DNA from: Odiellus spinosus
Lineage: Eukaryota > Arthropoda > Arachnida > Opiliones > Phalangiidae
NCBI GenBank assembly: GCA_963920705.1
Contig: OY987228.1
Location: 14,367,187-14,431,186 of the forward strand
Direction of reading: 5' to 3'
Length of the DNA stretch: 64,000 nt
Shown here: one piece after another, positions 5,390 through 44,011 of the stretch
Position numbering within the stretch: the first letter of the stretch is position 1
Layout of the letters: each line of letters begins with the position of its first letter
The notes under the pieces: generated by a model
Databases searched by the model: none
Seen by the model: the letters and a program-made list of their open reading frames with translations, nothing else
What the model was told of the DNA's origin: nothing
Position numbers and translations under genes: made by a program

Positions 5390-5495
5390 CCTTATTGCTT
5401 AACTTACTCTTAAAGACCACCTGTTTTAATTAAACTGTCATCCGAGGTTTTTCATATATGCAATTGAGTTTTCCCTTTCGGGAAAAACCAATGTA
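5390..5495 (-). promoter_or_regulatory. Orphan promoter with paired kB-like sites
   Basis: This segment aligns with the upstream regions of the cysteine-rich genes at 24588-24900 and 33170-33486. Shared parts are a CACCTGTT block, CTGTCATCCGA, a TATA-like CATATATG and an inverted pair of Rel-like sites: GTTTTCCC at 5468-5475 and GGGAAAAACC at 5480-5489. In those genes it sits roughly 100-200 bp upstream of the start codon. Here no signal-peptide exon follows on the minus strand, so it looks like the promoter of a lost gene. It could alternatively be a downstream enhancer of a neighbour. Confidence 0.5.
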
Positions 5496-5625
5496 GTAAA
5501 GTAGATAAACTACATTAGCAAGAGGCGTGGAATAATTTTATTCTATATCAAAGTCTGATTACAATTAACGAATACATCGTAAAGATTTTATATTAAGTAC
5601 GACGAAATTTGAAAAGGCTTGCGTT

Positions 5626-6283
5626 TTAATTCGGTCCACACACTTGTTTGGTGCATCGAGTTGTACATGATGGATACATACAACACGCTTGTCCACGTGG
5701 GCATGGTTTGAATGAAGGACTCTTTGGGTCACATTCAGGATCCGTCGAAACACTGGCGCACCTGGTTCTTGGTATCGGACATTCTCGATGACACGAACCT
5801 ATATTAAAAAATTATACTATAATTTTTATTATGAATTAAAGTCTTGCACATCTGCATTTATGTAGTTCAAAAAGAAAACAAGCCCCATAAAATTTCGTTT
5901 GCGACTTTAGTTGATTTACGTATTCTGCTTATACACAATCTAGCGAACCATTCGTTCGTTCGACCAAATAGAAGACTTAGTCATCTATCTTATCTTTCCT
6001 ATGATGAGAGTAAATGAAAGGCCAGATCATTTAAGCAGCTGACTTTGAACACGGAAGGGAAGAATACGTTAAATATTGTAAACCTTCGATGAAATATGGA
6101 TCAGTTTGCAATGTAGCAAAACATGCGGCGCATTTATACACAATGATAAAACTTTATAAGGGATAAATAAAAGGTTTTTATGGTTATGGTTAAATTAGTT
6201 TATAACTTACTTGGATTTTTTCCCGCATTAGCTAGGACTAGAGTCAAATAAAACGCGAAACATAGAAGTAAAATTCCAGACAT
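5626..6283 (-). CDS. Small secreted cysteine-rich protein (A type, copy 1)
   Basis: Two exons, 6211-6283 and 5626-5798, joined by a phase-1 intron with GTAAGT donor and AG acceptor; predicted 81 aa. Exon 1 encodes Met-Ser and a hydrophobic signal peptide ending near an Ala-Asn-Ala. Exon 2 encodes a mature region with ten cysteines ending C-x4-CC-x4-C-x3-C-x4-C, preceded by CPRGQ. The CPxG-x2-CC core is like that of WAP (four-disulfide-core) inhibitors, but the N-terminal half has its own spacing. Function is unknown; a secreted defence or inhibitor peptide is likely. A near-identical copy lies at 29639-30258. A TATA-like AATATAAT lies roughly 50 bp upstream of the start codon. Confidence 0.75.
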
Positions 6284-6578
6284 GTTGGCACTGGAGTTAA
6301 TTCTGTTATAGTTTCAGGTCTTGGACTAAAATCACGAAATTATATTGTGTTTAACGCGCATCAACATGATTTTTGAGGGGGATGAAGTAATGTACACGTC
6401 ATTTTTAGTTACGGGAAACTAGTTTTGAGTCACTATCTCGTTCATGCTTACATTTCATGTTGGCTTTGATGCATATGTACCATCTAGATTTGGTTTATCC
6501 ATTTACAATAGATTTTATTTTTAAAACCCTGCATGAAAACTAGATTTTTAGATAGAAATCGGTCGCGGCATTAATTAA

Positions 6579-7359
6579 AGGTACAGACCGGGATAAAAAA
6601 AAGTATGTCTTAAATTATAGAGCGTATATTAAAACGACTAATATCATATCGCAAAAAATTTAATAGTTAGTAGATATTAAGATATTTACGTTTATTATAA
6701 GCAAAAAGTGATCTCTAGTGAACGCCATTTTAGTTTTTTCATACCCTTTCGATGCCTGCTGAGGATCGGCTTCGCCGATTGGTTTATTTCTCACCTAAAG
6801 TCACTTGACTCTAGCTGAAAATAGATGCGGGTATAAGCGCGATCAATTTCTTTAGAGTCAAATAAGATATGCCGGGCCGAAACTTAGGCTACTTCCGAAG
6901 GATCCCGCGCGCGAACACTAACCCGAAGGTCGGTCGGCCAGCTGAGCTAGTAGTAGTCAGTACTAGGTATTAACCGAGTCTTAAGTTGATTTGAAGAATT
7001 AGAAGGTAAGAACTAAACTGCAATTAGGCATGTTTTCGTAGAAAGTTAGAAATCACAAAATTACGAGTCTTCTTACGAAGTTACGAACAGACGATCCGAC
7101 TGCAGCCGACTCGAATGGCCTTCGTTTCGCGAATCTTTATTGGGTGACTTAAAGGCCAATCATTGAAGCGGATCCTTATTTTTAAAACTCGAAATGCCGG
7201 GAAGCAAATATGGCGTTCTTCTAGGAACGTCAATTTCGGTTTTAAAATGATATTTATAAATTAACCAAGACTTAAACCACTATAATGTGTTTTGATTTGT
7301 AGGTTTTTAAGCATGCTCTTTCCAATGGAAGTACTTTTAAAGTTGGGTTGCCTTTCCCT
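6579..7359. mobile_element. TTAA-flanked MITE, family 1, copy 1
   Basis: A 781-bp insertion with TTAA on both sides (6575-6578, 7360-7363). The matching position in the duplicated block (about 30511) reads straight through a single TTAA, so this is a proven insertion. Ends are AGGTACAG and TTCCCT. No transposase ORF is present. Inverted copies lie at 26868-28674 and 44012-44807. TTAA targets are known for piggyBac and Kolobok elements. The AGG terminus does not fit the usual CCC start of piggyBac, so Kolobok-like is my preferred guess. Confidence 0.85.
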
Positions 7360-7788
7360 TTAAGCTCGCACCTACCACTTAACTCCAAAAACTTTACACA
7401 AAAAGTTGCTTAAGGGTAGAAATTTTTAAAAATTAACTTGGGTTGCGGTTTTTATTAAGAAATTAACTTTAGCGTAACTACCGTGGCCTTACAAACCATC
7501 TTTTTTTTTTTTTTTTTATTATTATTTTCTGAGTACTATTGCATCATTTCTTGTAACATTGTTAATCGCTGTAAGAACATTAAGGCACGTACTAGTAAAG
7601 CGAATTTAATTAAACAGGTTTAATTGTACTATAGCAGATTACCAAGAATCTGGTAATTCTTCCTTAAATGGAGAAATAAGTGATCGTCTATAGATTAATT
7701 TTGATTAAATTTTGTCGTATAAAATTACAACAAATATTAGACTAGAAATAAAGTTTTTAGCAAGGATCCATGGAGTTAGCAGTTTTCG

Positions 7789-8319
7789 CTTTAGTACCAT
7801 TCGACCGACGGCGGTTTTTGATGTGTCCCATTCGACCGAACGCAGCGCAAAAGTGCGGTTTTGTTTTGTCCCATTCGAACGAACACCGCCCAAAAGTGTG
7901 ACTAATCAGAAACCCCTACGAACAACGCGTAACCTAACCTAACCGTAAAAACACGAAATCTCCATTACAGTAATAACCTCCCCACCCAGTACCCGTATTT
8001 TTAACCCTGGTCGCATTTAAATCGTTGTAAATTACCACCATGTATCTTGAATTGTAAACAATTCTTTACAAATCATTAAATTACATTTCACAAACTTACA
8101 TTTCCCCAACGGGGAATCGATCCAGGATTTTCCGATTAATACTCCGATTCTTCCTCGACGCCACGGTGGTTAGAAAACCTCTCTCAAATCTTGTACACTT
8201 GTTTTTTGAATAATAACAATAATTTTTCCTTTAAAATCCCAATAAACCGAATACCGCCAATTGGGCTACATTTTAAAATTATTTCGGTTGAATGGGATTC
8301 TGTCGAATGGGACAATACC
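7789..8319. mobile_element. 531-bp insertion with 9-bp target duplication
   Basis: CAGTTTTCG occurs immediately before (7780-7788) and after (8320-8328) this segment. The duplicated block at about 31335 has a single copy with no insert. The ends are related inverted sequences containing CCATTCGAC (left) and GTCGAATGG (right). Further copies of TCCCATTCGAC-like sequence occur inside. No coding capacity. The superfamily is unclear; 9-bp duplications occur in Mutator-like elements, and hAT/P make 8 bp. Confidence 0.75.
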
Positions 8320-8529
8320 CAGTTTTCGGTCAACGAACAAAAAATTTGCGCCCAAGTTTAAAAAGTTTTACTGTCGTAATAAAGAAATTAAGCCTACTTT
8401 CCGAGTAAATTAAAAATTTAGTTTTAGCATAATATTGTAGTAAATTTGTTAACTATTGTATCATGGCAGGATTATTTTAACTAGATAGAATAGGTCGAAA
8501 ATAACTGTTCACGATTCATTTTGCCTTAA

Positions 8530-8573
8530 AGGGAGAATGCAACCAAATAAGTATTTTTTATCGATTCCTTATC
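8530..8573. mobile_element. Left-end remnant of TTAA-flanked MITE, family 2
   Basis: TTAA at 8526-8529 followed by AGGGAGAATGCAACC and about 30 bp matching the element at 31510-31882. It is then cut off by the deletion that also removed a cysteine-rich gene. Confidence 0.75.
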
Positions 8574-8592
8574 GAAACCCTTTACGAATCAT
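8574..8592 (-). pseudogene. Stub of a deleted cysteine-rich gene
   Basis: Only the start codon and the next few codons (MIRKGF) of a gene homologous to the pseudogene at 32005-32297 remain, with its upstream sequence to about 8731. Comparison with the duplicate block shows that the rest of the gene and part of a MITE were removed by one deletion. Confidence 0.7.
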
Positions 8593-8831
8593 TTTTTGGT
8601 TCTTTAAATTCTCGGTAAAATTTCAGCCTTTTAACAAAATAAGTAGATGTTCAAAGTACTGTTTCGTTAAACGCGAATACGCGTAGGATTTGCCATCTAC
8701 ATAATTTCGAAACTGGATCTTTGCGTCAAACACAATGCGGCGCATTTATACACAATGTTAAATCTCAAAGTTGGATATAAGTAGATATGAGAAAAGTTAA
8801 AGGAGCAATATTTGGTTTAATTTGAACTTAC

Positions 8832-8907
8832 TTCGGCCAAGTATTAGCGCTTCAGTTAGGACTGACGCCAAATAAAACCCGATACATAGAAGTACAATTC
8901 TGCTCAT
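8832..8907 (-). pseudogene. Orphan signal-peptide exon of a cysteine-rich gene
   Basis: A Met-Ser start, hydrophobic signal peptide and GTAAGTTC donor in phase 1 closely resemble exon 1 of the gene at 5626-6283. The short sequence downstream (8732-8831) also matches that gene's intron. No cysteine-rich second exon follows; homology instead runs into the truncated block ending at 8731. This looks like a partial gene duplication. The exon could splice to a distant Cys-rich exon (for example 5626-5798), which only transcript data could show. Confidence 0.65.
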
Positions 8908-9745
8908 GTTGTCACGGTTTTGCTTCCCTTGTGGCTTCTGTAGCTCGACTGAATAATATTGTTTGCTGCGTAGTGTTATTAACTGAGACGTTTGTGTGGG
9001 TGTGGAAGGGGGAAAAGGGGTAGAAATAATTCAAATGTACACGTCAATACTCCTTTCCATTTATCCACCATATTTCCATATTTCCATCCCACACTTTTTC
9101 CGTGAAAATTAGGAAACTGGTACTCTGTAAACAGCAGGTCTGCCAAACATTGAGCGTGAACCGTACTATTAAATCAGTTTAAGCTAGGCCTTAGTCTCGA
9201 ACCGGGCCCCGGTGACCTGCGTAACCAGAATACACTAAAAACCAGCGGAAACAGAGCTATAATTTTAAAGAACACAAAATAATAAACTAAGTGCTAGTCC
9301 ACTTCAAAAACAAATTATATATTCTTTCTTGACTTGTACAGCTTTACTACCCCCCTTTGATGGAAAGGAGTATTCATTTGTGTAAGGCATTTTCCGAGTA
9401 TTATTATTATTTTTTAAGTATTACGCCATTGGGTTGTAATATTGTTAACAGCTGTAAGATTAAGGCGACGGTCATAATGGTCATTGAAATGGTAATAATT
9501 ACTTAAAGCTTTGTATACGAAGTATATGCCTATATCTGAAAACCATGGGATTAATAGAAGTAATGTTTAATTTAAATATTGCTGTTCTATTTTTTAATTG
9601 ATATTAACTCAAATATTTAAAGAAAATGTTTCAGAAATTGATGTGAAACTAAATCACAGCTAGGGCTTCGTAAACACGATGAGAGAGGAAATAAAACACT
9701 AATCACCACTGCCTCCCACTAAAATTCACCATGTAATGGCTCCGT
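8908..9745. other. Intergenic stretch, no gene seen
   Basis: AT-rich sequence between the orphan exon and the second duplicated segment. It contains a G-rich run near 9000-9020 and no recognisable exon or element. Confidence 0.5.
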
Positions 9746-10125
9746 CCTAGTAAAAGGGCATTTGCCTTCTCAATATATAAATCAGTCTATATCGCTTATA
9801 TATATATGTTTGTTTAGCCATCGTTCCGAAAAGGCTATTCAAATTTTGTTAGGATTAATTGGTGACAGCACCACTTTAATAATTTAATTCGGCCAATTTA
9901 CCCTGAATAATTAATCAACTCTAAAAACAATCACTAGGTTGAAGAATAATTCTGCGCTAATTGGTCTTAATTATGACACACTTATAAGTAAATATATTAA
10001 ATTGTTAAATACCTGGAATTTTATTATTATTATAAGTTTATTGATACAAATTGCACAAGTCAACATACCATAGAGCTATGCTAATTATTACCATACTTAT
10101 TAAAAAAATATTTTGAGAAAATATT

Positions 10126-10445
10126 TCAATGACATATTGTTGAAGTTGTGTTGGTATTAAAGCATCGACGGGTGCAGCACATTGTGCAGCAAATTTTTCC
10201 AGTTGGACAAGGGCGCTGGCTTGAACACACTGGATTTCTTTCGGGTACTCGACAAAGGCAATTATTGGGTGGACATTTGCAGTTTTCCACTAAAATTAAG
10301 CAAATAAAATCAGTATATATTTTTTCATTTAAATTCCTGGCAAAACACTTGAATTATTTTATATAAATACGTTTTCGTGCTTACCTTCAACAATTAACGT
10401 AACAGATATGATCATAATAAAGTACAAAATTCTTAACCCAGACAT
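10126..10445 (-). CDS. Small secreted cysteine-rich protein (B type, copy 1)
   Basis: Exons 10385-10445 and 10126-10289 with a phase-1 intron (GTAAGC donor, TTTTAG acceptor); predicted 74 aa. Exon 1 is a hydrophobic signal peptide beginning Met-Ser-Gly. Exon 2 encodes a mature region with twelve cysteines: C-x-C-x4-C-x-C near the start, then C-x5-C-x5-CC-x2-CC-x3-C and a last Cys near the end. The C-x5-C-x5-CC-x3-C-x3-C spacing is that of the WAP core. The twin at 34173-34471 differs by synonymous changes in the part I compared. Unlike the twin, this copy retains an intact kB-like site upstream. Role unknown; possibly antimicrobial or protease-inhibiting. Confidence 0.8.
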
Positions 10446-10610
10446 ATTGTTCATTAAATTTTGGTTGTATAACCTTCTTGTAACCGCGGCACTAAATTAT
10501 ATTTTAGTTGAAAACTTATTTTTTTATCTCGTTATTTCTCAAAATGTCGTGTCGTAGATAAATTTAAGACTATTCAGCTCTATGGATATAAAGCAAGCAT
10601 GATCTGTTCA

Positions 10611-10619
10611 GGTTTTCCC
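10611..10619 (-). promoter_or_regulatory. Rel/NF-kB-like site upstream of the 10126-10445 gene
   Basis: Read on the minus strand the site is GGGAAAACC, a good match to insect Rel/Dorsal sites (GGGAAAACC/T). It is followed about 20 bp downstream by a TATA-like TTTATATCC stretch and lies some 165 bp upstream of the start codon. The duplicated copy near 34630 reads GGTAAAAAC and has lost the core. Confidence 0.5.
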
Positions 10620-11088
10620 TTATTTTATTATATATTACATTTTTTTTTTTGCAAAATAAGATCCACCCTATTGCACTAAAGACTTTGAAACCAAATTCTT
10701 ATCATTTCAAGAAATGCAATGTCAATTATTGAGATTGAACGGCTTCTTCTACGCTTAGAACCCTATATATTTATTTAATTCCATGTTTAAACAAAAAAGA
10801 CTCGAGACCATTTCGAAATCTCATAGTTTAAGACAATAGACTTAAGTCCGAAAGAAAGAGATAGCGTCATGACTCGTACTTCTATCTTGACTCTCACTTT
10901 ATTGCTTCCAAATCAGTGAACCTCGTAATCGTGGTTCAAAGGAAAACTCCCAGCTAAATTTATTTTCAAAAGGAATTTTAAATATATATTTAAAAATATT
11001 GTTTCTGAATTTTTGACTGGATTTTATTATTTTAATAACTTGTTACGTGTGTGTCCTGTTCTTCAAAGAATCAACTCATTCTTAATTC

Positions 11089-16153: not shown

Positions 16154-16479
16154 TTACCTTGGTTTCAACAGTTTACAATCGAAGCATTGTTTTACTCCGC
16201 ACGGTGTGGGGCAACACGCTTGGGTGTACATCATTGGGCAATCATGGATGGCTTCGAGGCAAGTTATCCGATAGGATTTATCGCATTTGGCGGTTAAAGG
16301 GTCATATTTTGGACACGAGCAATCTTTAAATATATTTTTTTATTTACGAATAATTAAATATTAAGTCATTTTAAGTAGTTCATAACTTCATACTTACCGA
16401 TTGGAGCGGCGTCAAAATTCATTAGCACATTAATGAACAGTAATAGAGTAAAACTAAGCTGATACCGCGCGATCTTCAT
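16154..16479 (-). CDS. Small secreted cysteine-rich protein (C type)
   Basis: Exons 16398-16479 and 16154-16323, phase-1 intron (GTAAGT donor, TTTAAAG acceptor); predicted 83 aa. Exon 1 is a signal peptide. Exon 2 starts with Asp-Cys-x-Cys-Pro, as in the gene at 24588-24900. It has ten cysteines with a C-x6-C-x7-CC-x3-C-x4-C-x2-C tail. This is WAP-like with a longer loop. It lies tail-to-tail with the cyclase ending at 16005. Function unknown. Confidence 0.75.
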
Positions 16480-16896: not shown

Positions 16897-17191
16897 TTAA
16901 CCCGTTATTCTTTGGCGGCAACGAACATCCATGCATTTGATTTCGCAACAATACATGCAACATTTAAGACCCTTTTCGCAACTGAAGATATCTGTCGTGT
17001 TACATTGAGGATTCTTAACTGGCTCTGAGCAAAAGCAAGGATCGGGCGGGCACGAACCGCAAAAATTATCGGGCGCAACTGGGTAGTTATTTTAATTAAA
17101 TTTAATTCAAATATTAATTAAGATTAATTGACTTACTTGGTGTATTGTCCACTGTAGCAAATCCTACCAATAAGTAAACCGCCAAACAAAA
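16897..17191 (-). pseudogene. Cysteine-rich gene split by a foldback element (body)
   Basis: Exon 2 (16897-17078) is intact, with twelve cysteines in the B-type pattern, including C-x5-CC-x2-CC-x3-C. The preceding exon (17137-17191, GTAAGT donor, phase 1) encodes the hydrophobic part of a signal peptide but has no start codon. Its 5' end stops exactly at the left end of the foldback element. The missing ATG, in the matching frame, lies at 22082-22084 on the far side of the element, preceded by probable leader sequence. The gene is therefore broken in this haplotype unless the element is removed or spliced out. Confidence 0.8.
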
Positions 17192-17265
17192 GAACGCCGT
17201 TTCGGTCAAAATTATTTCAATGAGATGTTGCTTATGGGAGAGGTTGTTGTCTTTAGCACGGGCAG

Positions 17266-18075
17266 GTGTTCATTTCTACGAGAGATGATGTTTCCTGCTA
17301 GAGATGATATTTTCTACGAGACGATGTTTCCTACGAGAGAATGTGTTTCCTACGGGAGATGATGTTTCCTACGGGAGATGATGTTTCCTACGGGAGATGA
17401 TGTTTCCTACGAGAGATGATGTTTCCTACGAGAGATGATGTTTCCTACGGGAGATGATGTTTCCTACGGGAGATGATGTTTCCTACGGGAGATGATGTTT
17501 CCTACGGGAGACGATGTTTCCTACGGGAGACGATGTTTCCTACGGGAGACGATGTTTCCTACGGGAGACGATGTTTCCTACGAGAGACGATGTTTCCTAC
17601 GAGAGATGATGTTTCCTACGAGAGATGATGTTTCCTACGAGAGATGATGTTTCCTACGAGAGGCGATGTTTCCTACGAAAGGCGATGTTTCCTACGAAAG
17701 GCGATGTTTCCTACGAGAGGCGATGTTTCCTACGAGAGGCGATGTTTCCTACGAGAGGCGATGTTTCCTACGAGAGGCGATGTTTCCTACGAGAGATGAT
17801 GTTTCCTACGAGAGATGATGTTTCCTACGAGAGATGATGTTTCCTATACGAGAGATGATGTTTCCTACGAGAGATGATGTTTCCTACGAGAGACGATGTT
17901 TCCTACGAGAGGCGATGTTTCCTACGAGAGATGATGTTTCCTACGAGAGATGATGTTTCCTACGAGAGACGATGTTTCCTACGAGAGACGATGTTTCCTA
18001 CGAGAGACGATGTTTCCTACGAGAGACGATGTTTCCTACGAGAGATGATGTTTCCTACGAGAGATGATGTTTCCT
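17266..18075. repeat. 19-bp minisatellite, left foldback arm
   Basis: About 42 units of TTTCCTACGAGAGATGATG, with variants GGGAGATG, GGGAGACG, GAGAGGCG and GAAAGGCG in blocks. One 2-bp insertion (TATACG) near 17836 shifts the phase. Three units make 57 bp, so the array reads open as a 19-residue repeat. I regard that as incidental. Confidence 0.95.
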
Positions 18076-18495
18076 TCGTGGTTCAGAATTAACTTAATTT
18101 GTGCTGAATAATTTTGATAATTTCAAGCTTTTCAGTTTTTTATTTCATCCACCCTTTACACTTTAAAATGATTTCAAAAGCTACACGAGTTAAGTATAGG
18201 TGGCAGGAGGGTTTAAGGTAAATGGCGGACTTTCAGCTATAAAAAACTCGGCAAACCTTATAGTCAAAAACAGTGTATGACGTAACATGCACAGGGTCAT
18301 TTTTACTCGGGTTTGGGACAGGAGTAGAAGCTTGCATATACGGTCATGGAGGAAATGCACCGTCGCGGAACTATCTTGAATTTAGATTTGATTAATAATC
18401 TATACATGGCTTTAGGTAAAGTATGCGTGATAAAATGACTGAGAGATCACTTATTTCACTACATTTTTTATCAATTTCTCAAATACGCTTCTCAG

Positions 18496-18615
18496 CCCCG
18501 ATTCTATAATAACCGTGTTAAATATAACCACACCGCCTCGATTCTATAATAGCCGTGTGAAATAAAATCACACCGCCTTGATTCTATAATAACCGTGTTA
18601 AATATAATCACACCT
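18496..18615. repeat. Three tandem copies of a roughly 43-bp unit
   Basis: CGATTCTATAATAACCGTG...CACACCG occurs three times in the left arm but only once in the right arm (about 20780-20820). The copy number changed after the arms formed. Confidence 0.85.
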
Positions 18616-18919
18616 TTATAATCAATAAACAGTAATTGTACGGGTCGTGATAAATCTTACCAAGCACCATTATATTAAATATTATTTTCAGGTGAATTTT
18701 TTCGATGAGAAAAAATAGTGAGAATTTTTTCGAATCTTGACATAACAGTCAAAAGACCAGCGCGCACCGCACTGGAGAGTATATTTTCGCGAAATTTCAA
18801 AATAACATATTTGATGATAATTTATTAAAAACCAAACTTTTAACTTATAATAGTAATATACTTCTAAGATCACCAAAATTATATAATGATTCGTTTTTAC
18901 CTTTATTGGTTAAAACATT

Positions 18920-19733
18920 GCCTCCTCGATCACGCACTACGGCGGCGCTCGCGCTATAGAAGCCCCGGCAATCGGCCGAAAATCGCGAATAAATGAATTC
19001 TCGAGATTTACAAGTACACCAAACTGATGCACGTCTCAAATTCGCAGCATTTCGCCCTTTTCAGAGCTTTAACGATTTTTAAAAGCCACAATTAAAATAT
19101 ATGTTTTGTAAATTAGTTTATTTTATCTCCGTAACCATAATTTTAGGGCGATTAGTTTTTAAGTTAAAAATTAAAAATAAACGTAAGATTGTAGCGTGTG
19201 CAAAGCTTTACCGCGTACAATTTGGTGCTTCAACCATTAATTTTGTAATTTCTCTCTCTTATCAATTCTCACAATTGCAACCTTATTAATTTTAACACTT
19301 GTTTTCGAGTGAAATAGTATCGAGTGAAATAAAAATCAAATCAGAGTGAAATTTGAATAAAAGTTTATAAATAGGGTCTATAGCGTATCTACAGTGCCTG
19401 TGTAAATGGATCAAGGCTTTAGATTTAATAATTTCAACAATTATTAACGCCAAATCTGCAATTCTCAAAGGCTCGGAATTAATTTGTAAATTATCCGTAC
19501 ATAGTTAATTAGATGTGGTTAAAAAATCAGGAAGCTGGAGCTTAAATTTAAAGCTTTAGACAAGAATTTGTTTCTCCCCTCGACTTTTCCCCCCTAACAT
19601 TTTAGTGCTTTTTCGCGCCGTCTTTTGGAGTACTTTTAATTTCCCATTTATTCTCTCAAACACGTGTTAATTTTTTTCTTTGCCGGGGCTTCTATAGCGC
19701 GAGCGCTGCCGAAGCGCGTGATCGAGGAGGCTA
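18920..19733. repeat. Inner inverted repeat in the foldback loop
   Basis: About 53 bp at 18920-18972 (core GCGCTCGCGCTATAGAAGC) is mirrored at 19680-19733. It encloses some 700 bp without coding sequence. Confidence 0.8.
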
Positions 19734-20105
19734 CGGTTAAAATGAATCGGAACTATACTTCGGCGGTGACAGAAAAATCCCCCGCCTTGACTGCACGCGC
19801 GCCGAGTATAGGATTTTATGGCCTAATTCATATTTTTTTACCTACTCATTATTTACATAATACCCATTATTAGAATTTTCCAAGTTTTTGAAAGTTTATT
19901 TAATATTGTCAATTTCGTCATTTTCTCTTCGTCTTTTCCACACACATACTTCAGACATACATACTACAGCCAAGAGAAAAATATAAGCCTACACCTTTGG
20001 TTTTTCTAAAAACCTTTTCCAGTAAAAATTCTTCAAAAATTAAGAAAAACTTCAGAGGGCATCTTGAATTTTAAAAGGCATAGTGTCCACGGAATTTTTA
20101 CAAGC

Positions 20106-20308
20106 AAAAAAAAATCAATCAAAACGGATACTTAGTGGAATTTTTTTTTTTATTTTAAAAATTATTTAAAGGCATTAAACGCGAGCTTTCGAACCGTGGT
20201 CCCTTTTCAATCGCTTGAAAGGGACCACGGTCCGAAAGCTCGCGTTTAATGCTTTTAATTAATAATAAAAAAAAATCCACGAAGTATCCGTTTCGATTGA
20301 TTTTTATT
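20106..20308. mobile_element. Palindromic MITE in the foldback loop
   Basis: AATCAATCAAAACGGATAC at the left is mirrored by GTATCCGTTTCGATTGATT at the right. The centre is a near-perfect hairpin (ATTAAACGCGAGCTTTCG and complement around 20215). About 200 bp, non-coding. Confidence 0.75.
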
Positions 20309-21235
20309 ACTTCAGAGGGCATATTTCATGGCCAACTTAGATCAGGTCCTCCGTCCCCTTTAAGGCCCATCTGCTTTGGCGGAGCTAATACTAAAAATCG
20401 TATAAAATGTTCGTTTCAAGTGTTTAAGATCAGGAATTATTTTAACATAGAGAATCACATGATTTTCTTCTTCACCCTCCTTTTAATACTAAAATATTGG
20501 AATTCATCATCCCTTTATTTATAATAAAAGTATATTACTATTTTTAGTTAAAAGTATCGGTTTTAATACATTATCATAAAATATGTTATTTTGAAATTTA
20601 GCAAAAATTTACTCTCTAGTGCTGGTCTTTAGGTTTATTACCCCCTATGGCCAAGGTCTATTTACTGGATAAATACAGGAAGCTAAGATTTGAAAAAATT
20701 CACCTGAAAATAATATTTAATTTAATGGTGCTAGGTTAGATTCACCACGACCCGTACAATTACTGTTTATTGATTATGAAGTAGGTGTGATTATATTTAA
20801 CACGGTTATTATAGAATCGGGGCTGAGAAGCGTATTTGAGAAATTGATAAAAAATGTAGTGAAATAAGTGATCTCTCAGTCATTTTATCACGCATACTTT
20901 ACCTAAAGCCATGTATAGATTATTAATCTAATCTAAAGATAGTTCCGCGACGGTGCATTTCCTCCATGACCGTATATGCAAGCTTCTACTCCTGTCCCAA
21001 ACCCGAGTAAAAATGACCCTGTGCATGTTACGTCATACACTGTTTTTGACTATAAGGTTTGCCGAGTTTTTTATAGCTGAAAGTCCGCCATTTACCTTAA
21101 ACCCTCCTGCCACCTATACTTAACTCGTGTAGCTTTTGAAATCATTTTAAAGTGTAAAGGGTGGATGAAATAAAAAACTGAAAAGCTTGAAATTATCAAA
21201 ATTATTCAGCACAAATTAAGTTAATTCTGAACCAC

Positions 21236-22003
21236 GAAGGAAACATCATCTCTCGTAGGAAACATCGTCTCTCGTAGGAAACATCGTCTCTCGTAGGAAA
21301 CATCGTCTCTCGTAGGAAACATCGTCTCTCGTAGGAAACATCATCTCTCGTAGGAAACATCATCTCTCGTAGGAAACATCGCCTCTCGTAGCAAACATCG
21401 TCTCTCGTAGGAAACATCATCTCTCGTAGGAAACATCATCTCTCGTAGGAAACATCATCTCTCGTAGGAAACATCATCTCTCGTAGGAAACATCATCTCT
21501 CGTAGGAAACATCGCCTCTCGTAGGAAACATCGCCTCTCGTAGGAAACATCGCCTCTCGTAGGAAACATCGCCTCTCGTAGGAAACATCGCCTCTCGTAG
21601 GAAACATCGCCTCTCGTAGGAAACATCATCTCTCGTAGGAAACATCGTCTCTCGTAGGAAACATCATCTCTCGTAGGAAACATCGTCTCTCGTAGGAAAC
21701 ATCGTCTCTCGTAGGAAACATCGTCTCCCGTAGGAAACATCATCTCCCGTAGGAAACATCATCTCCCGTAGGAAACATCATCTCCCGTAGGAAACATCAT
21801 CTCCCGTAGGAAACATCATCTCTCGTAGGAAACATCATCTCCCGTAGGAAACATCATCTCCCGTAGGAAACATCATCTCCCGTAGGAAACATCATCTCCC
21901 GTAGGAAACATCATCTCCCGTAGGAAACACCATCTCTCGTAGGAAACATCGTCTCGTAGAAAATATCATCTCTAGCAGGAAACATCATCTCTCGTAGAAA
22001 TGA
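21236..22003. repeat. 19-bp minisatellite, right foldback arm
   Basis: About 40 units, the reverse complement of the left array. Variant types occur in broadly the same order from the outer to the inner end, but with different copy numbers. Confidence 0.95.
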
Positions 22004-22081
22004 ACATCTGCCCGTGCTAAAGACAACAACCTCTCCCATAAGCAACATCTCATTGAAATAATTTTGACCGAAACGGCGTTC

Positions 22082-22084
22082 CAT
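22082..22084 (-). pseudogene. Detached start codon of the split cysteine-rich gene
   Basis: The ATG directly abuts the right end of the foldback element. The 60-80 bp beyond it look like the gene's leader. Its frame matches the signal-peptide codons at 17137-17191. See the entry at 16897-17191. Confidence 0.65.
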
Positions 22085-22176
22085 AGTTTTCGCTTTCCTT
22101 GTTTCGTGTCTCAATAGCTTAGAGACTGATTTTCAAATGAATTTAATAACTAACCTTGTTTTTCTGAAAGCTGTAA

Positions 22177-22752: not shown

Positions 22753-23092
22753 TCAAGGTCGTACTAATTGGTCAATGCCCAGGCATTCTGGCTCGCATAA
22801 TTTGGTACAACATTTTTCACATTTAGCGCAACCCTTCTCCGGGGTACATTTTGGTGTGAAGTTGCTGGGAAATGGTAGGCACGAGTCTGATGGTGCCGGG
22901 CATTGGTATCCTTTCATTAAAAAAAATAGGGTTGTCTATTTTGGCTGATGACAATTTTGAACATAAAAATAATAGCTCACTTGAGTAACACCCTGTATTA
23001 CTGACGTAACCAGCTCCAATAATATAGAAAAAGGATAATATTACAATTAAAGTACATTTGTTTTGAATCGAAATATCACTAAATAACTTCAT
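22753..23092 (-). CDS. Small secreted cysteine-rich protein (C-like, divergent)
   Basis: Exons 22981-23092 and 22753-22910, phase-1 intron (GTGAGC donor, GAAAG acceptor); predicted 89 aa. The N-terminus has a hydrophobic signal segment at about residues 13-28 and one cysteine before the intron. Exon 2 has nine cysteines, including C-x-KC-x2-CC-x3-C-x3-C. A WAP-like tail is recognisable, but the spacing before CC is shorter. TATA-like sequence lies about 50 bp upstream, and a partial kB-like GGGAAAAAGG near 23213-23222. Function unknown. Confidence 0.7.
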
Positions 23093-26215: not shown

Positions 26216-26503
26216 TTAAGAACATATACCTGATGTGGAGCTAAAGCACTTAGATGTACAACATTTTGTACAACAAGTTTGCCCATATGGGCAAGGTTTT
26301 GCAAGAAAACATATCGGATTTATTTCTGCTATCAAACATTCGCAGGTTCGTTGTGGGCATTTGCAGTTTTCAACTGAAATTATCTTAAATTAATTATCGA
26401 AAAATCTTACCATTTCAATGGTATCATTTAATTGAATTAAATTACCTCGAATAATGAAAGTAACGGATATAATTAATAAGACGGCAAATCCTTTACGAAG
26501 CAT
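26216..26503 (-). CDS. Small secreted cysteine-rich protein (B type)
   Basis: Exons 26446-26503 and 26216-26373, phase-1 intron (GTAATT donor, TTTCAG acceptor); predicted 71 aa. Signal peptide in exon 1 (MLRKGF start, hydrophobic core). Exon 2 has twelve cysteines beginning Glu-Asn-Cys-Lys-Cys-Pro and including CPYGQ-x-CC-x2-CC-x3-C. Closest to the genes at 10126 and 34173 and to the pseudogene at 32005. No clear kB site upstream. Confidence 0.78.
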
Positions 26504-29638: not shown

Positions 29639-30258
29639 TTAATTCGGTCTACACACTTGTTTGGTGCATCGAATTGTACATGTTGGATACATACAACACG
29701 CTTGTCCCTGTGGGCATGGTTTGTATGAATAACTCTTTGGGTCACATTCAGGATCCGTCGAAACTCTGGCGCACCGGGTACTTGGTATCGGACATTCTAG
29801 AGGACACGAACCTATATAAAAAAAATTATCTTTTAATTGTTTTTATTTTGAATTAATTTAAGTCTTGCACATTTATGTAGTTAAAAAGAAAACAAGCCCC
29901 ATAAAAAATCGTTCGCGACTATAGCTGAATATTGTCTTCTGCTTATACATAATCTAGCGAGCCATTGGTCCAAATAGAAGACTTAGTCATATACCTGATC
30001 TTTACTATGAAACGTAAATGAAAGGACAGATTATTTAAGCAGCTGACTTTGAACACGGAAGGGAAGAATACGTTAAATATTGTCAGCATTAGATGAAATA
30101 TGAATCGGTTTTCAATGCACAATGTTAAGCTTTATAAGGAACAAATAAAAAGTTCTTATGGAAATGGTTAAATTAGTTTATAACTTACTTGGGTATATTC
30201 CCGCATTAGCTAGGACTAGCGTCAAATAAAACGCGAAACAGAGTAAAATTCTAGACAT
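29639..30258 (-). CDS. Small secreted cysteine-rich protein (A type, copy 2)
   Basis: Exons 30189-30258 and 29639-29811, phase-1 intron (GTAAGT donor, ATATAG acceptor); predicted 80 aa. Duplicate of the gene at 5626-6283, with one codon deleted in the signal peptide. Several mature-region codons are changed (for example Arg to Gln in the CPxGQ segment). All ten cysteines are kept and the frame is intact, suggesting that both copies are constrained. Confidence 0.75.
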
Positions 30259-31509: not shown

Positions 31510-31882
31510 AGGGAGAATGCAACCAAATAAGTATTTTTTATTGATTCCTTAATCGTTTAAATAGGTCTATGAAAATTGCAAACCAATATTAAACTAGAAA
31601 TAAATTAAAAACTAACCCGTAAAATAGGCTTAGCTGGATTCATGGAGATCCTGAATTTTTTCACGTTAATTTGTTAGCGACCAATCGAATGTTATTTGGT
31701 AGATGTCGCCTTGACGACGGGCCTTTACCCATTGGTCCTATCAATGCGAAGAAATTCAGGGTCTCCATGAATCCAGCTAAGTGTATTTTTCCGGCTAAGT
31801 TTTAAATTGATTTCTAGTTTAATATTTGTTTGTAAATTTGTTTTCAGTGGATAAAAAATAACACTCGCTGTTAGGTTGCATT
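31510..31882. mobile_element. TTAA-type MITE, family 2, right end truncated
   Basis: Begins AGGGAGAATGCAACC and carries the same palindromic interior (CTTAGCTGGATTCATGGAG and complement). It stops at GGTTGCAT without the final CTCCCTTTAA. The block A counterpart (8530-8573) shares the left end, so the insertion predates the duplication. Confidence 0.8.
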
Positions 31883-32004
31883 GAAATTTCCGTTGTTTTC
31901 ATTAAACCATCGGATTTATGGATGTAATATTGAAAATTAAAACAAAAGCTAAGGTAACAATCCATTGGTTATGTTTATTTCAAATATTTAAAAAATTCAA
32001 GATT

Positions 32005-32297
32005 TTATAGCTGAAGTCGATGTGGAGATGAGGTACTTGACATTACAAATTTACAACAAATTGTACAATTCCGTTTTTCCCATATGGACCGGTTTTTTTG
32101 ACTAGAACATATTGGATTTCTTTCCGCTACAAAACATCGGCAATTATTTTCTGAACATTTGCAGTTTTCCACTAAAATAATGAACAATTTGAACTTTGTT
32201 CTACTGGGTAAAAAAATTTAATTTATTACACTTTTTACCTTGAATAATTAACGTTAACCATTACTATTAATAAGACGGCAAACCCTTTACGAACCAT
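32005..32297 (-). pseudogene. Frameshifted cysteine-rich gene (B type)
   Basis: Exon 1 (32239-32297) aligns with that of the 26216-26503 gene but has one extra base near its end. The splice then joins out of phase (59 nt instead of 58). Exon 2 (32005-32171) starts with the normal Glu-Asn-Cys-Lys-Cys but shifts frame where CPYG-type codons are expected, losing the CC-x2-CC-x3-C tail. The gene was present before the block duplication; its copy in block A is deleted to a stub. Confidence 0.7.
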
Positions 32298-32441
32298 TTT
32301 TTGGTTGTTTAAATTCTCGGTAAAATTTCAGCCTTTTAACAAAATAAGTAGATGTTCAAAGTACTGTTTCGTTAAACGCGAATACGCGTAGGATTGCTTT
32401 TTGCATCGACATAATTTCGAAACCGGATCTTTGCGTCAAAC

Positions 32442-33169
32442 CAAACGTTACTCGAAAACTCCGTTCCATGGGAATGGCGCTGCAATTCGGTTATAATATC
32501 TTGAGAATAGGGAGTCTGCACACAGTGTCATTTCCATATTCTAGCAATTACAGCTAAGTGCTGCCTTTTATTTATAGAGTTATCTTAAGAGGTTAGTTAA
32601 ATTATATTATAATTCAATTATAATACTATGAATTATAATACTTCAAATTTCGTAGGCGATTTTCGTTGGTATAATATGTACAGTAAAATATATAAGTGAG
32701 AATCTTATTAGCTTGGATAATCGGGCACTCAAAAATCAATAGATGAACTCAACTGAAAATGCGTTTAGCAAATAATTTCATTGCACCTGCATGCTGAGAA
32801 AGGCAAAATGGGCAAAATGGGTGGTTTGTCTTAAATCGCTACGTTGATTGACCAATTAAATCCTGGATTTCATTATCATACTGTGTTCAAAATTAAAAAC
32901 GATTTAATCCGTCGGCTATAAGTCTATAACACAATATTGTTTTAATAATTTTCCCCGAGCTGTTAATTTTTATTATTTTTTTTTAATCAGATAATTAGAT
33001 TTATTCTATAGATAGTTATGTTACATCTAGAAGAAAATATTAAATTTTACATTTTCATTTTTGTTAAGAATCTTCCCAATTTTCGAAATGAGGCAGTGTT
33101 TAATTTCCTGGTCTGAAATATATTTAAATTGTTATATATATTCAATTTACTAAATATCAATTGGTAGTT
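32442..33169. other. Intergenic stretch, no gene seen
   Basis: AT-rich sequence between the end of block B and the pseudogene at 33170. No exon or element recognised. Confidence 0.5.
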
Positions 33170-33486
33170 TTACCCTGGCTCAATAATTGGCTCTTTTAGG
33201 ATACATTTGGTGCATTTCTTGCCACCACAACGCGTGAGACAGCATTTTTCCTGGTACAATATTGGACAATCGCTATCAGACTGACCTAGCTGGATCAGGA
33301 AGTTGAACGCAATCGACTGTTGGGGGGGTTAAATTTGGGACATTTGCAAACTAATAAAATTAAGAGTCATTAATTAGTAATCAATCTGTTATACATTTGA
33401 ATCTTACCACCCGATGATCCCATTGTTTTGGCTAACAAGTTTATTAACAGCAAACACGCGTATACGTAATAGGGCGAATTATACAT
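33170..33486 (-). pseudogene. Frameshifted cysteine-rich gene (C type)
   Basis: Exon 1 (33408-33486, GTAAGA donor, phase 1) is intact and closely resembles that of 24588-24900. Exon 2 (33170-33350) opens with Cys-x-Cys-Pro, then loses frame at a run of seven C (minus strand). It regains similarity in another frame (VDCVQLPD-like), shifts again at about 33280, and ends with a well-preserved QSDSDC...KCC...KKC tail. Two frameshifts make a product unlikely, unless the C-run is a sequencing error. Confidence 0.7.
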
Positions 33487-33599
33487 TTCTTATAAAAATC
33501 GAAAAATGTTCCGAAAACAAAATTTGATAAACAATCGCGCTCAGGTGTATATTATATCCTAAGCTTATAATTTATTTCTGAAGACCACTTGTTTTAATT

Positions 33600-33680
33600 T
33601 AACTGTCATCCGACATTTATTTTTCATGTAGGCAATAGCTGGGTTTTCCCATTTTGAGAATGAGCTGGGGGAAAACAGGT
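33600..33680 (-). promoter_or_regulatory. Promoter with kB-like sites upstream of the 33170 pseudogene
   Basis: GGGTTTTCCC (33641-33650) and GGGGGAAAAC (33667-33676) face each other, as in the gene at 24588-24900. The spacing is longer (16 bp between them), and the same CTGTCATCCGA and GGCAATAGCTG blocks are nearby. Confidence 0.45.
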
Positions 33681-33831
33681 TGAAATATATGAAACACATC
33701 TGCACACAACACGTACATTTTAATAACAAAGAGGTATGATGGAAAGTAACTGTGAACATTCTTATTCTAAACCAAAATCTATAGCACTTAAAGAATATAA
33801 TATACAGATTTATTTTAATAAATCCCTACCA

Positions 33832-35055
33832 CCTAGTAAAAGGTCATTTGCCTTCTCAATAAATAAATCAGTCTATATCGCTTATTTATATGTTTGTTTA
33901 GCCATCGTTCCGAAAAGGCAATTCAAATTTTGTTAGGCTAATTTACCCTGAATAATTAATCAACTCTAAAAACAATCACTAGGTTGAAGAATAATTCTGC
34001 GCTAATTGGTCTTAATTATGACACACTTATAAGTAAATATATTAAATAGTTAAATACTGGGAATTTGATTATTATTATTATAAGTTTATTGATACAAATT
34101 GCACAAGTCAACATACCATAGAGTTATGCTAATTATTACCATACTTATTAAAAAATATTTTGAGAATATATTTCAATGACATATTGTTGAAGTTGTGTTG
34201 GTATTAAAGCATCGACGGGTGCAGCACATTGTGCAGCAAATTTTCCCAGTTGGACAAGGGCGCTGGCTTGAACACACTGGATTTCTTTCGGGTACTCGAC
34301 AAAGGCAATTATTGGGTGGACATTTGCAGTTTTCCACTAAAATTAAGCAAATAAAATCAGTATATATTTTTTTCATTTAAATTCCTGGCAAAACACTTTT
34401 TCGTGCTTACCTTCAACAATTAACGTAACAGATATGATCATAATAAAGTACAAAATTCTTAACCCAGACATATTGTTCATTAAATTTTGGTTGTATAACC
34501 TTCTTGTAACCGCGGCACTAAATTATATTTTAGTTGAAAACTTATTTATCTCGTTATTTCTCAAAATGTCGTGTCGTAGATATATTTAAGACTATTCAGC
34601 TCTATATAAAGCAAGCATGATCTGTTCAGTTTTTACCTTATTTTATTATATATTACAATTTTTTTTTTGCAAAATAAGATCCACCCTATTGCACTAAAGA
34701 CTTTGAAACCATATTCTTATCATTTCAAGAAATGCAATGCCAATTATTGAGATTGAACGGCTTCTTCTACGCTTAGAGCCCTATATTTATTTAATTCCAA
34801 TGTTTAGACAAAAAAGACTCGAGACCATTTCGAAATCTCATAGTTTAAGACAATAGACTTAAGTCCGAAAGAAAGAGATAGCGTCATGACTCGTACTTCT
34901 ATCTTGACTCTCACTTTATAGCTTCCAAATCAGTGGACCTCGTAATCGTGGTTCAAAGGAAAACTCGCAGCTAAATTTATTTTCAAAAGGAATTTAAAAT
35001 ATATATTTAAAAATATTGTTTCTGAATTTTTGACAGGATTTTATTATTTTAATAA
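33832..35055. repeat. Duplicated segment 2, copy B (partner 9746-11040)
   Basis: Direct duplicate with small indels; carries the gene at 34173-34471. Confidence 0.85.
34173..34471 (-). CDS. Small secreted cysteine-rich protein (B type, copy 2)
   Basis: Exons 34411-34471 and 34173-34336, phase-1 intron; predicted 74 aa. Signal peptide and twelve-cysteine mature region as in the twin at 10126-10445, including CSSQRPCPTGK followed by CC-x2-CC-x3-C. A TATA-like CTTTATATAGAG (gene sense) lies near 34600. The kB-like site present upstream of the twin reads GGTAAAAAC here, so the two copies may differ in inducibility. Confidence 0.82.
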
Positions 35056-35535
35056 ATTTCTATTTATTCGGAGAAATGAGAAACCACGCAAGCTAGTCAG
35101 GAATGGCCAGCCTTAACATTTAGAGTTTCTAGGGACATTACTAGCCACATCTATCGCTAGTACTGTTAAAGGCTAGCCTATTATGATTGTTTAGATTTCT
35201 CATCTCCTTGAAATTCAAAACTTAATTAAATTTTAGGAAAAAATATAAATATTAAAATATCATTTAAAAATTCGGTAAAAGAAAAGGTAATTCTAATACT
35301 GAACAAAATCTAAAAATTTACTGAAAATGTCTTTCATTTTTAGCTTGGAGTGTTCCTTTAATTAGGCAACTCGTAAATGAACTGATATAGATACTTGGCT
35401 CGCCTTGAAACCCCCTTTAGCGTGTATTTCAAGCCCTATTAACCATCTCATCAGCAATTTTAATTGTGGTCACTGTATATACATAATTAAAATTTCATAT
35501 TCCATATACTTCGTTAAATAATTATGAATTATCTT
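35056..35535. other. Intergenic stretch, no gene seen
   Basis: AT-rich sequence between cysteine-rich genes; nothing recognised. Confidence 0.5.
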
Positions 35536-35852
35536 CTAAAACTGGCAATTGGGACCAAGTTCTTTGCATAATTTGTAACCGCAACAGTCAGGGCAGCAAA
35601 TACTCCCTTCGGGACAAACAAGATCATCCTGACATATAACTTGGTTCATTATTTTTAACGAGTAAGAACAACAACAAGATTCGCATTTCGGAAGCGGACA
35701 ACACTCATCTGAAATGAATCGTTCCTTAATGAATTATTTAATTTTCTACATGAAAATTTGTCGTAAAAATATAAAATCTTACTGCAATATATCTCTTTAA
35801 TGAATAAAAACATTCCCACGAAGAAAACAAAAGTTAAGTACAAAACCTGCAT
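35536..35852 (-). CDS. Small secreted cysteine-rich protein (14-Cys variant)
   Basis: Exons 35783-35852 and 35536-35708, phase-1 intron (GTAAGA donor, TTTCAG acceptor); predicted 80 aa. Hydrophobic signal peptide in exon 1, with one further Cys at the exon end. The mature part has fourteen cysteines in an unusual N-terminal arrangement (CC, C, then CCC) before a regular C-x5-C-x5-CC-x2-CC-x4-C tail. The QDDLVC segment resembles the acidic loop of WAP domains. It neighbours the long member at 36063-37129. Function unknown. Confidence 0.78.
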
Positions 35853-36062
35853 AATGGTGACTTGTTTTTACAACAACCTTTAAGCTTATAATTAAAAATG
35901 ATTGTTTAAAATTATATTAAAATTTAATTGCACTTTGAAAGTAAACATCATACGTGTTTGGTATATAGGTTGTCAAAGAATTCGAAACAAAGGTTTTGTT
36001 CGTAATTTTTATCAAAAGTGCATTATTTTATTTGGAAAAGTATGTTCATGCTCGGGGATTTA

Positions 36063-37129
36063 TCAAAAATAAACGGTATGACAATCTGGTTTAACGCATG
36101 TAGTCCTGCAGCAAGAAGAACAGCATTTCTCCTTCTTAGCTTCGCAATAACTATCGTCTCCGCAAAAGGATGGAAGTTTAAAGTTAAGCAAACAGAGACA
36201 CCTGCTAGGCGGACATTGGCAAAATTCCCTCGAAGAGATCACTTCGCCTATAGTTACCATAAAACACGCAATCGATAAAATATTTCAGTAACGAAAGGTT
36301 ATATCTTACTTGAACAACTTATGGCTGGCATACAATATCTCCCGCAGCAATGGGTACAACACTTATAGCCCGATGGACAATTACTGTGATTCGAGCATTT
36401 GGGTTCCGGTATTGGTGGGTTTCCTCCGTATTGTAAAGTTAAATAGTAGCAACATTCGTCCCTTGGACAACAACTGACATTGGGAATTGGTTGGTCGTTG
36501 ACATTTACTGGCTTGTTAATTGGCTGAACATAGACACCATTGGCTATCCTTGGAACGTTGTTATTAGGTATGGGATAGGAAATTGGTGGTATATTGTTAT
36601 TTGAATATGATCTTACGTTGAGATTTGGGTTCAAATTAAGGGTAGGGTTAACGTAAGGGATTGGTCGTGCGTTCAGACTAGGATTAACGTAAGGACTTGG
36701 TCGCGCGTTCATGCTAGGGTAAGGTCGTGAGTTGTGATTAGGGTTAACGTAAGGGTTGGGTTGTGGGTTAACGTAAGGGTTGGGTTGGGGGTTAACGTAA
36801 GGGTTGGGTTGGGGGTTAACGTAAGGGTTGGGTTGGGGGTTAACGTAGGGATTCGGTCTAGAGATTCGGTAAGGGTTGTTTGGTTGCGCGTTCACATTAC
36901 GGTTAACTATATTGCTAACGTAAGGTGGTCTCGCGTTCAAACCAGGATTTAAATTACGACCACGATTATAATACGAAGAGGGTCCAGAGTTTAGGCTAAC
37001 GTAAGGATTGGCTCTGACATTCCGGACTGGGTTATTATAAATAGGGTTTGGATAAGGATTAGATCTATAATAAACCTGAGCTCGGCAGATAATCACTAAA
37101 CAACACAACAGTAATAAAGCGAAATTCAT
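36063..37129 (-). CDS. Long secreted protein: Asn/Pro repeats plus two cysteine-rich domains
   Basis: Exons 36310-37129 and 36063-36247, with a 62-bp phase-1 intron (GTAAGA donor, ACTATAG acceptor); predicted 334 aa. Signal peptide at residues 1-17. Residues about 18-215 are rich in Asn, Pro, Tyr and Arg, with about five perfect NPYVNPQP units at about 95-135 and looser copies on both sides. Cys domain 1 (end of exon 1) has twelve cysteines, including C-x5-C-x5-CC-x2-CC-x3-C. Domain 2 (exon 2) has twelve with C-x5-C-x6-CC-x2-CC-x3-C. Without splicing, the frame ends three codons after the donor with domain 1 only. The phase-1 intron before exon 2 is at the family position, suggesting that the long exon 1 arose by inserting or expanding sequence upstream. 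A matrix or cuticle role, or an effector with a repeat tail, is possible. Confidence 0.8.
36755..36860. repeat. 24-bp tandem repeat encoding NPYVNPQP
   Basis: Four to five nearly identical 24-bp units (GGGTTAACGTAAGGGTTGGG on the plus strand) inside the long cysteine-rich gene. Near-identity of the units indicates recent expansion. Confidence 0.9.
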
Positions 37130-44007: not shown

Positions 44008-44011
44008 TTAA

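What the first reader, a model, noticed from the sequence alone, without database searches (positions are those of the whole stretch)
5468..37129. Tandem cluster of a secreted cysteine-rich (WAP-like) family with at least fourteen loci on one strand
Seen: repeated signal-exon / phase-1 intron / Cys-rich exon units, all on the minus strand. Ten are intact, two frameshifted, one split by a transposon, one an orphan exon, plus one stub. Shared core C-x5-C-x5-CC-x2-CC-x3-C with 10, 12 or 14 cysteines and three N-terminal styles (C-x-C-P, CC...CCC, C-x3-C-P). Known: WAP domains have C-x5-C-x5-CC-x3-C-x3-C. Inference: a lineage-specific effector family (antimicrobial, protease inhibitor or similar) in rapid birth-and-death, possibly undescribed because each gene is too short for standard gene finders.
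Basis: partly seen in the sequence, partly recalled or inferred. Interest (0 to 1): 0.88.

Follow-up and report, generated by a model that had tools for sequence, protein, structure and literature searches.

The report
Cluster of extra-stapled WAP-like secreted peptides
A stretch of an animal (probably insect) chromosome carries fourteen tandem copies, ten of them intact, of a small secreted cysteine-rich peptide gene that looks like a distant, fast-changing relative of the WAP protease-inhibitor and antimicrobial family, with extra cysteine pairs that may act as additional staples.

Summary
The minus strand carries 14 cysteine-rich loci: 10 intact (9 with signal exon, phase-1 GT-AG intron and Cys exon; 1 single-exon), 2 frameshifted, 1 cut by an inverted-repeat transposon, 1 orphan exon. 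Open Cys-rich frames number 13, against 0-2 in 20 shuffles. Part of the cluster is a ~6-kb block duplicated 24 kb away.
It is WAP-related, though below Pfam's cut-off (best 16.0 of 20.8 bits): the 6 PDB matches of its profile are all WAP domains (best E 0.0075), and it aligns over 25 columns to canonical WAP exons of the same genome (P 2e-5; 0 of 60 column shuffles). Most loci add one or two cysteine pairs that are present or absent together, which I read as added disulfides. Cysteines are kept better than other residues. Two genome-wide queries matched only this cluster, but missed most of its own loci; no annotated relative was found.
Function is inferred: secreted inhibitor or defence peptides. 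Structure prediction was inconclusive; expression could not be tested. New variant of a known kind.

The parts
5626..6283 (-). locus 5.6: signal exon 6283-6211, intron 412 nt, Cys exon 5798-5626; intact, 81 aa, 10 Cys in the mature region
10126..10454 (-). locus 10.1: signal exon 10454-10385, intron 95 nt, Cys exon 10289-10126; intact, 12 Cys
16154..16479 (-). locus 16.1: signal exon 16479-16398, intron 74 nt, Cys exon 16323-16154; intact, 10 Cys
16897..17192 (-). locus 16.9: Cys exon 17078-16897 (12 Cys) with the 3' part of a signal exon and its donor near 17137; the 5' part of the signal exon is cut by the transposon
17169..22103 (.). transposon-like insertion with about 1.37-kb terminal inverted repeats (95% identical) that hold arrays of a 19-bp unit; exact ends and target-site duplication not settled
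22753..23092 (-). locus 22.7: signal exon 23092-23002, intron 91 nt, Cys exon 22910-22753; intact, 9 Cys, WAP-like spacing plus one extra Cys between C4 and C5
24588..24900 (-). locus 24.6: signal exon 24900-24822, intron 58 nt, Cys exon 24763-24588; intact, 10 Cys in the mature region
26216..26503 (-). locus 26.2: signal exon 26503-26446, intron 72 nt, Cys exon 26373-26216; intact, 12 Cys
29639..30258 (-). locus 29.6: duplicate of 5.6; signal exon 30258-30189, intron 377 nt, Cys exon 29811-29639; intact, 10 Cys in the mature region
32008..32217 (-). locus 32.0: relative of 10.1/26.2 whose Cys exon leaves the family pattern after the third WAP Cys; broken
33173..33486 (-). locus 33.2: relative of 24.6; signal exon from 33486, Cys exon apparently split over two frames (33173-33328, and weakly 33298-33366); broken
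34173..34480 (-). locus 34.2: duplicate of 10.1, protein identical; signal exon 34480-34411, intron 74 nt, Cys exon 34336-34173; intact, 12 Cys
35536..35852 (-). locus 35.5: signal exon 35852-35783, intron 74 nt, Cys exon 35708-35536; intact, 14 Cys in the mature region
36066..36284 (-). locus 36.1: orphan Cys exon, 12 Cys in the mature part, no signal exon found; Pfam WAP 15.8 bits
36299..37129 (-). locus 36.3: single-exon gene, signal peptide, Asn/Pro-rich repeats, C-terminal 12-Cys WAP-like domain; Pfam WAP 16.0 bits, the family's best
4928..11041 (.). copy 1 of a duplicated block; copy 2 is at 28671-35058 (pieces 77-93% identical)

Best explanation
A tandem cluster of secreted, WAP-derived peptides in which the eight-cysteine WAP core has gained one or two further cysteine pairs. 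Pair a/d puts a Cys just before C1 and one just after C8 and is absent in only one locus. Pair b/c puts a Cys next to C2 and another directly before C7. In WAP domains C2 bonds to C7 (recalled, elafin/SLPI) and the inhibitory loop follows C2, so b-c would be a second staple beside that bond at the foot of the loop. I think the likeliest use is as a set of secreted inhibitors or defence peptides, each presenting a different residue after C2 (R, L, S, Y, A, D or V) on a stabilised scaffold, multiplied by local duplication. Shown: gene structures, duplication, cysteine conservation, profile similarity to WAP, joint presence or absence of the extra cysteines. Inferred: the pairings, secretion, and the inhibitor or defence role.
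For: The 6 PDB matches (E up to 10) of the 11-sequence profile are all WAP domains, best SLPI E 0.0075; a 6-sequence profile gives 5, all WAP. Alignment to 7 canonical WAP exons of the same genome: P 2e-5, probability 77%, 25 columns; 0 of 60 column shuffles reach the score, reversed alignment E 0.31. The family profile finds 7 of the genome's 10 canonical WAP exons at E <= 0.015 and nothing in 60 kb of flanks. Spacing: C1 is followed by Pro in 11 of 11 distinct loci, C1-x6-C2 in 7 of 11 and C2-x8-C3 in 5 of 11, as in SLPI (seen); CC-x3-C7 in 9 of 11; C7-x3/4-C8 in 11 of 11. Extra cysteines, by my own numbering: a/d both present in 10 and both absent in 1; b/c both present in 6 and both absent in 5. 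TATA-like hexamer 41-64 nt before the ATG in 7 of 10 intact genes; random 80-nt windows hold one in 24% (the interval was chosen after looking, and two pairs are duplicates).
Confidence: 0.6

Rival explanations
1. Antimicrobial or opsonin peptides on a WAP-like scaffold (crustin/waprin-like use), without protease inhibition.
For: Crustin-like sequences are reported in hymenopteran genomes among antimicrobial peptides (passage, PMC4874388) and honeybee Amwaprin as microbicidal and anti-elastolytic (passages, PMC11047345). Net charge is positive in 7 of 11 distinct mature regions, +5 for 10.1.
Against: Charge is zero in three and -3 in one of the 11. In the ant Lasius niger the one crustin did not respond to any challenge and hymenopteran crustins are said to be functionally uncharacterised (passages, PMC11513022).
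Confidence: 0.3
2. Venom, salivary or reproductive-tract peptides with a non-protease target, kept variable by conflict with hosts, prey or mates.
For: WAP proteins occur in hymenopteran venoms (passages, PMC8402507; PMC13418622). dN/dS is near one in the 5.6/29.6 pair.
Against: No tissue data and host identity unknown; the other compared pairs look constrained, though two of them have saturated dS.
Confidence: 0.2
3. Not WAP-related: an independent knottin-like family that converged on a CC-containing pattern.
Against: PDB profile matches are all WAP domains; column shuffles do not reach the score against the genome's own WAP exons; C1-P and the SLPI spacings recur.
Confidence: 0.15
4. Mostly a decaying array of pseudogenes, with few or no working genes.
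For: 4 of 14 loci are broken, interrupted or orphaned.
Against: 10 of 14 keep open frames; all 12 Cys are kept between 10.1 and 26.2 despite saturated synonymous change, and the identical proteins of 10.1/34.2 differ by one synonymous base.
Confidence: 0.06

Closest known systems
WAP domain, PF00095 (SLPI, elafin, waprins)
   Same: Order of eight cysteines with adjacent C5-C6; C1-Pro; C1-x6-C2-x8-C3 as in SLPI in several loci; CC-x3-C-x3/4-C in most; profile matches to SLPI, nawaprin, omwaprin and elafin.
   Different: Below Pfam's cut-off; one or two added cysteine pairs in 10 of 11 distinct loci; unusual spacings in 16.1/24.6 and 5.6/29.6.
Crustins and hymenopteran crustin-like peptides
   Same: Secreted peptide with a C-terminal WAP-like domain. 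Shrimp crustin VII is reported to have two extra cysteines in its WAP domain (passage, PMC7401287).
   Different: No Cys-rich region C-x2~3-C-x7~13-CC before the WAP domain (pattern quoted, spacings). Where crustin VII's extra cysteines lie was not seen, so the layouts were not compared.
Honeybee Amwaprin
   Same: Insect WAP peptide with more than eight cysteines.
   Different: Its four additional cysteines follow the WAP domain (passage, PMC11047345), whereas here they lie before C1, within the core and just after C8.
Nasonins of Nasonia (defensin-like)
   Same: A fourteen-member family of short Cys-rich peptides; a phase-1 intron after the signal peptide is reported for nasonin-1 and nasonin-2 (passages, PMC2853521).
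   Different: Defensin (cysteine-stabilised alpha-beta) fold, three bridges in nasonin-1, not the WAP pattern.

Membership tests
WAP domain (PF00095) | Eight cysteines in order with C5-C6 adjacent and C7, C8 following at about 3 and 3-4 residues | tested here: met
   11 distinct loci: adjacent CC in 11 of 11, CC-x3-C7 in 9 of 11 (x4 in 2), C7-x3/4-C8 in 11 of 11; numbering assigned by eye
WAP domain (PF00095) | Score at or above the Pfam curated cut-off of 20.8 bits | tested here: not met
   Best 16.0 bits; 3 of 10 loci match WAP at all (which left out 10.1 and 34.2) and 3 of 11. I therefore call the family WAP-related, not a Pfam member.
WAP domain (PF00095) | Profile-level similarity to established WAP domains | tested here: met
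   6 of 6 PDB matches are WAP; hhalign to 7 of the genome's 10 canonical WAP exons P 2e-5 over 25 columns, 0 of 60 column shuffles; the seven had been matched by the family profile before
WAP domain (PF00095) | WAP fold | tested here: inconclusive
   Two low-confidence AlphaFold2 models; only the better one was compared with known structures
WAP domain (PF00095) | Disulfides C1-C6, C2-C7, C3-C5, C4-C8 (recalled) | not testable with these tools
   Needs disulfide mapping or a structure
Crustin type I | Cys-rich region C-x2~3-C-x7~13-CC before the WAP domain | tested here: not met
   Absent from the spacings of 11 distinct loci; pattern from a passage of PMC7401287
WAP-type protease inhibitor | Inhibition of a serine protease through the loop after C2 | not testable with these tools
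   The residue after C2 varies among loci

The most novel reading that the evidence does not exclude
A lineage-restricted derivative of the WAP fold with two added disulfides, one stapling the foot of the inhibitory loop beside C2-C7 and one tying the N- and C-termini together, used as a hyperstable and fast-diversifying scaffold whose residue after C2 differs from copy to copy.
Probability: 0.35. Interest if true: 0.6.

Novelty: new variant of a known kind. Interest (0 to 1): 0.42.

Why it matters
If the pairings hold, this shows how a well-known inhibitor fold gains extra staples in steps (8+2, then 8+4 cysteines) inside one gene cluster, with intact and dying copies side by side. It would also mean that Pfam-based surveys miss diverged WAP peptides: none of the loci tested here passes the WAP cut-off, while 10 other exons of the same genome do.

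Tried and rejected

Annotated relatives: two alignment searches of the protein database found none (7 candidates, none E <= 0.01; 235 candidates, none E <= 10). A control with a WAP-Kunitz exon of the same genome returned 13 vertebrate Kunitz proteins and no insect protein, so the nulls say little about insects.

Genome-wide: 10.1 gave 5 hits (one at E 0.97) and 5.6 gave 2, all inside the window. Those same searches missed 9 and 12 of the cluster's own 14 loci, so diverged members elsewhere are not excluded. Queries with 24.6, 36.1 and 35.5 and the insect odorant-receptor family did not complete.

First dN/dS run used exon starts off by one base and is void; one search replaces it.

The staple reading is kept at the same odds, placed at the foot of the loop.

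Considered and set aside from recall only: polydnavirus Cys-motif proteins, defensins and trypsin-inhibitor-like (TIL) domains. Pfam listed none of these for the loci searched, which is weak evidence for such short sequences.

Literature: the listings of searches (at most 20 papers each, titles and starts of abstracts) and passages of nine papers showed no description of this 12-Cys arrangement. Most subscription papers are not in that library.
Full report
Setting. The window is C4:14367187-14431186 of an unnamed 443-Mb genome in 286 contigs.

Anatomy. A scan of all six frames for stretches with at least 7 Cys in 50 residues found 13, all on the minus strand between 5629 and 37141; one of them is the broken locus 32.0. 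A profile built from the other 12 matched 32.0 again and added the broken locus 33.2, making 14 loci. With signal exons, nine have a signal exon with a hydrophobic core, a phase-1 GT-AG intron of 58-412 nt and a Cys exon reading to a stop. Locus 36.3 is a single exon: signal peptide, Asn/Pro-rich repeats, then the Cys domain. Locus 36.1 has no signal exon that I found. Loci 32.0 and 33.2 leave the family's frame inside the Cys exon (for 33.2 the second frame is matched only at E 3.7). Locus 16.9 has its signal exon cut by a 4.9-kb element with 1.37-kb inverted repeats.

More than chance. Shuffles of 2-base blocks of the cluster gave 0-2 such stretches in 20 trials (mean 0.15) against 13 observed; the rest of the window gave 0 and 60 kb of flanks gave 2, which are a repeat-like and a hydrophobic frame and are not matched by the family profile. 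In leave-one-out tests each of 10 held-out groups ranked above every frame of the window that is not a family locus, with E from 1.4e-10 (10.1) to 0.12-0.36 (36.3, 35.5, 16.1); the most diverged loci are thus weak individually.

History. Pieces of 4928-11041 match 28671-35058 at 77-93% identity. The block carries 5.6/29.6 and 10.1/34.2. No counterpart of 32.0 or 33.2 aligns in copy 1. Between 5.6 and 29.6, 6 synonymous and 17 non-synonymous changes give dS 0.117 and dN 0.098; 11 of 11 cysteines (one in the signal peptide) and 55 of 69 other residues are kept. Between 10.1 and 34.2 there is one synonymous change in 77 codons. Between 10.1 and 26.2, dN is 0.40 with dS saturated at 2.7; 12 of 12 cysteines and 26 of 58 other residues are kept. 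Between 16.1 and 24.6, dN is 0.60 with dS saturated; 9 of 12 Cys columns and 17 of 68 others agree. In the five aligned 12-Cys loci, the 12 columns with at least three Cys average 91% pairwise identity and the 35 other ungapped columns 20%.

Kinship. Pfam gives WAP only below its cut-off of 20.8 bits: 3 of 10 loci (best 14.6) and the same three of 10 trimmed exons (36.3 16.0, 36.1 15.8, 22.7 12.4); the other loci give no WAP match. The profile of 11 loci against the PDB gives 6 matches up to E 10, all WAP domains: two SLPI entries (0.0075, 0.009), nawaprin (0.051), omwaprin (0.15) and two elafin entries (0.63, 0.64). A profile of six loci gives 5, again all WAP. The single exon 36.1 finds SLPI first (E 0.038), with two unrelated chains at E 0.7. 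In the host genome PF00095 itself finds 10 exons above the cut-off, none in this window. The family profile matches seven of them at E <= 0.015 and an eighth at 0.1. Those seven, aligned, match the family by hhalign with P 2e-5 and probability 77% over 25 columns (C3 to C8); no column shuffle of 60 reached the score, for either of two family alignments, and the reversed alignments gave E 0.31 and 0.21. Because the seven were already profile matches, this is not a blind test. I conclude that the family is WAP-related but diverged beyond the Pfam model.

The extra cysteines. I number the WAP cysteines C1-C8 on the spacings. C1 is followed by Pro in 11 of 11 distinct loci. Taking C2 as the last Cys before C3, C1-x6-C2 holds in 7 of 11 and C2-x8-C3 in 5 of 11, the spacing of SLPI. 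Two further cysteines flank the core: a, with 0-3 residues between it and C1, and d, with 2-9 residues between C8 and it. Two more lie inside it: b, one or two residues before C2, and c, directly before C7. Of 11 distinct loci, a and d are both present in 10 and both absent in 1 (22.7); b and c are both present in 6 and both absent in 5; no locus has one without the other. 35.5 has two more cysteines, both between C1 and C3, which blurs b there; 22.7 has one odd cysteine between C4 and C5. HMMER's alignments to SLPI disagree on which of the two neighbouring cysteines is C2 (one way, the other); the second way fits the spacing. The numbering is by eye and the loci are related, so the joint presence is suggestive only. 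It predicts bonds a-d and b-c. Since WAP domains bond C2 to C7 (recalled), b-c would lie beside that bond at the foot of the inhibitory loop. Structure prediction could not test this.

Range. Two searches of the whole genome, with 10.1 and with 5.6, found only loci of this window (5 of 5 and 2 of 2), but they also missed 9 and 12 of the 14 loci here, so they bound only close relatives. No further copies appear in 30 kb on either side by the more sensitive profile. Two searches of the protein database found nothing, but the control shows doubtful insect coverage.

Function. Inferred. WAP peptides serve as protease inhibitors and antimicrobials and occur in hymenopteran venoms (passages read: PMC11408880, PMC4874388, PMC8402507, PMC11047345, PMC10221683, PMC13418622). 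Against a simple immune role, the crustin of Lasius niger did not respond to the challenges tried (passage, PMC11513022). The residue after C2, the P1 position in SLPI and elafin (recalled), is R, L, S, L, Y, S, A, A, D, V and L in the 11 loci, as expected of inhibitors diversifying in specificity but equally of a loop no longer under that constraint. Net charges from -3 to +5 argue against one simple cationic antimicrobial role. I put inhibitor-type use first, antimicrobial use second, gland or reproductive use third.

Novelty. Extra cysteines in WAP domains are known (crustin VII: two, PMC7401287; Amwaprin: four after the domain, PMC11047345; passages). The layout seen here did not appear in the listings. 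I rate it a new variant of a known kind.

Noticed in passing
window 17169-22103: Element with about 1.37-kb terminal inverted repeats (95% identical) that each hold 40-42 copies of a 19-bp unit, foldback-like; it cuts the signal exon of locus 16.9.
   Followed up: partly
window 4284-4784, 12645-13259, 15271-16005 (+ strand): Exons of cyclase-like genes (PF04199) lie on the opposite strand among the peptide genes; a possible first cyclase exon with a signal peptide is in L021 within 623-1093 (by eye, not tested).
   Followed up: partly
window 6575-7363, 27937-28678, 44008-44811: A dispersed element of 0.7-0.8 kb with three copies in the window, 95-98% identical.
   Followed up: no
window 855-2306 (-) and L021 5129-6364 (-): Retroelement coding regions with DUF1759 in the window and DUF1758 and DUF5641 in the flank, with tandem repeats inside the window's frame.
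   Followed up: no
L009-L012 and L014 (G000 C14:8275934-8285621): Five of the genome's ten canonical WAP exons lie within 10 kb on C14; the frame of one of them also finds Kunitz proteins.
   Followed up: no
window 30560-30967, 31507-31852, 52615-52977: A diverged repeat of about 0.35 kb in both orientations beside the duplicated block, possibly involved in its duplication.
   Followed up: no
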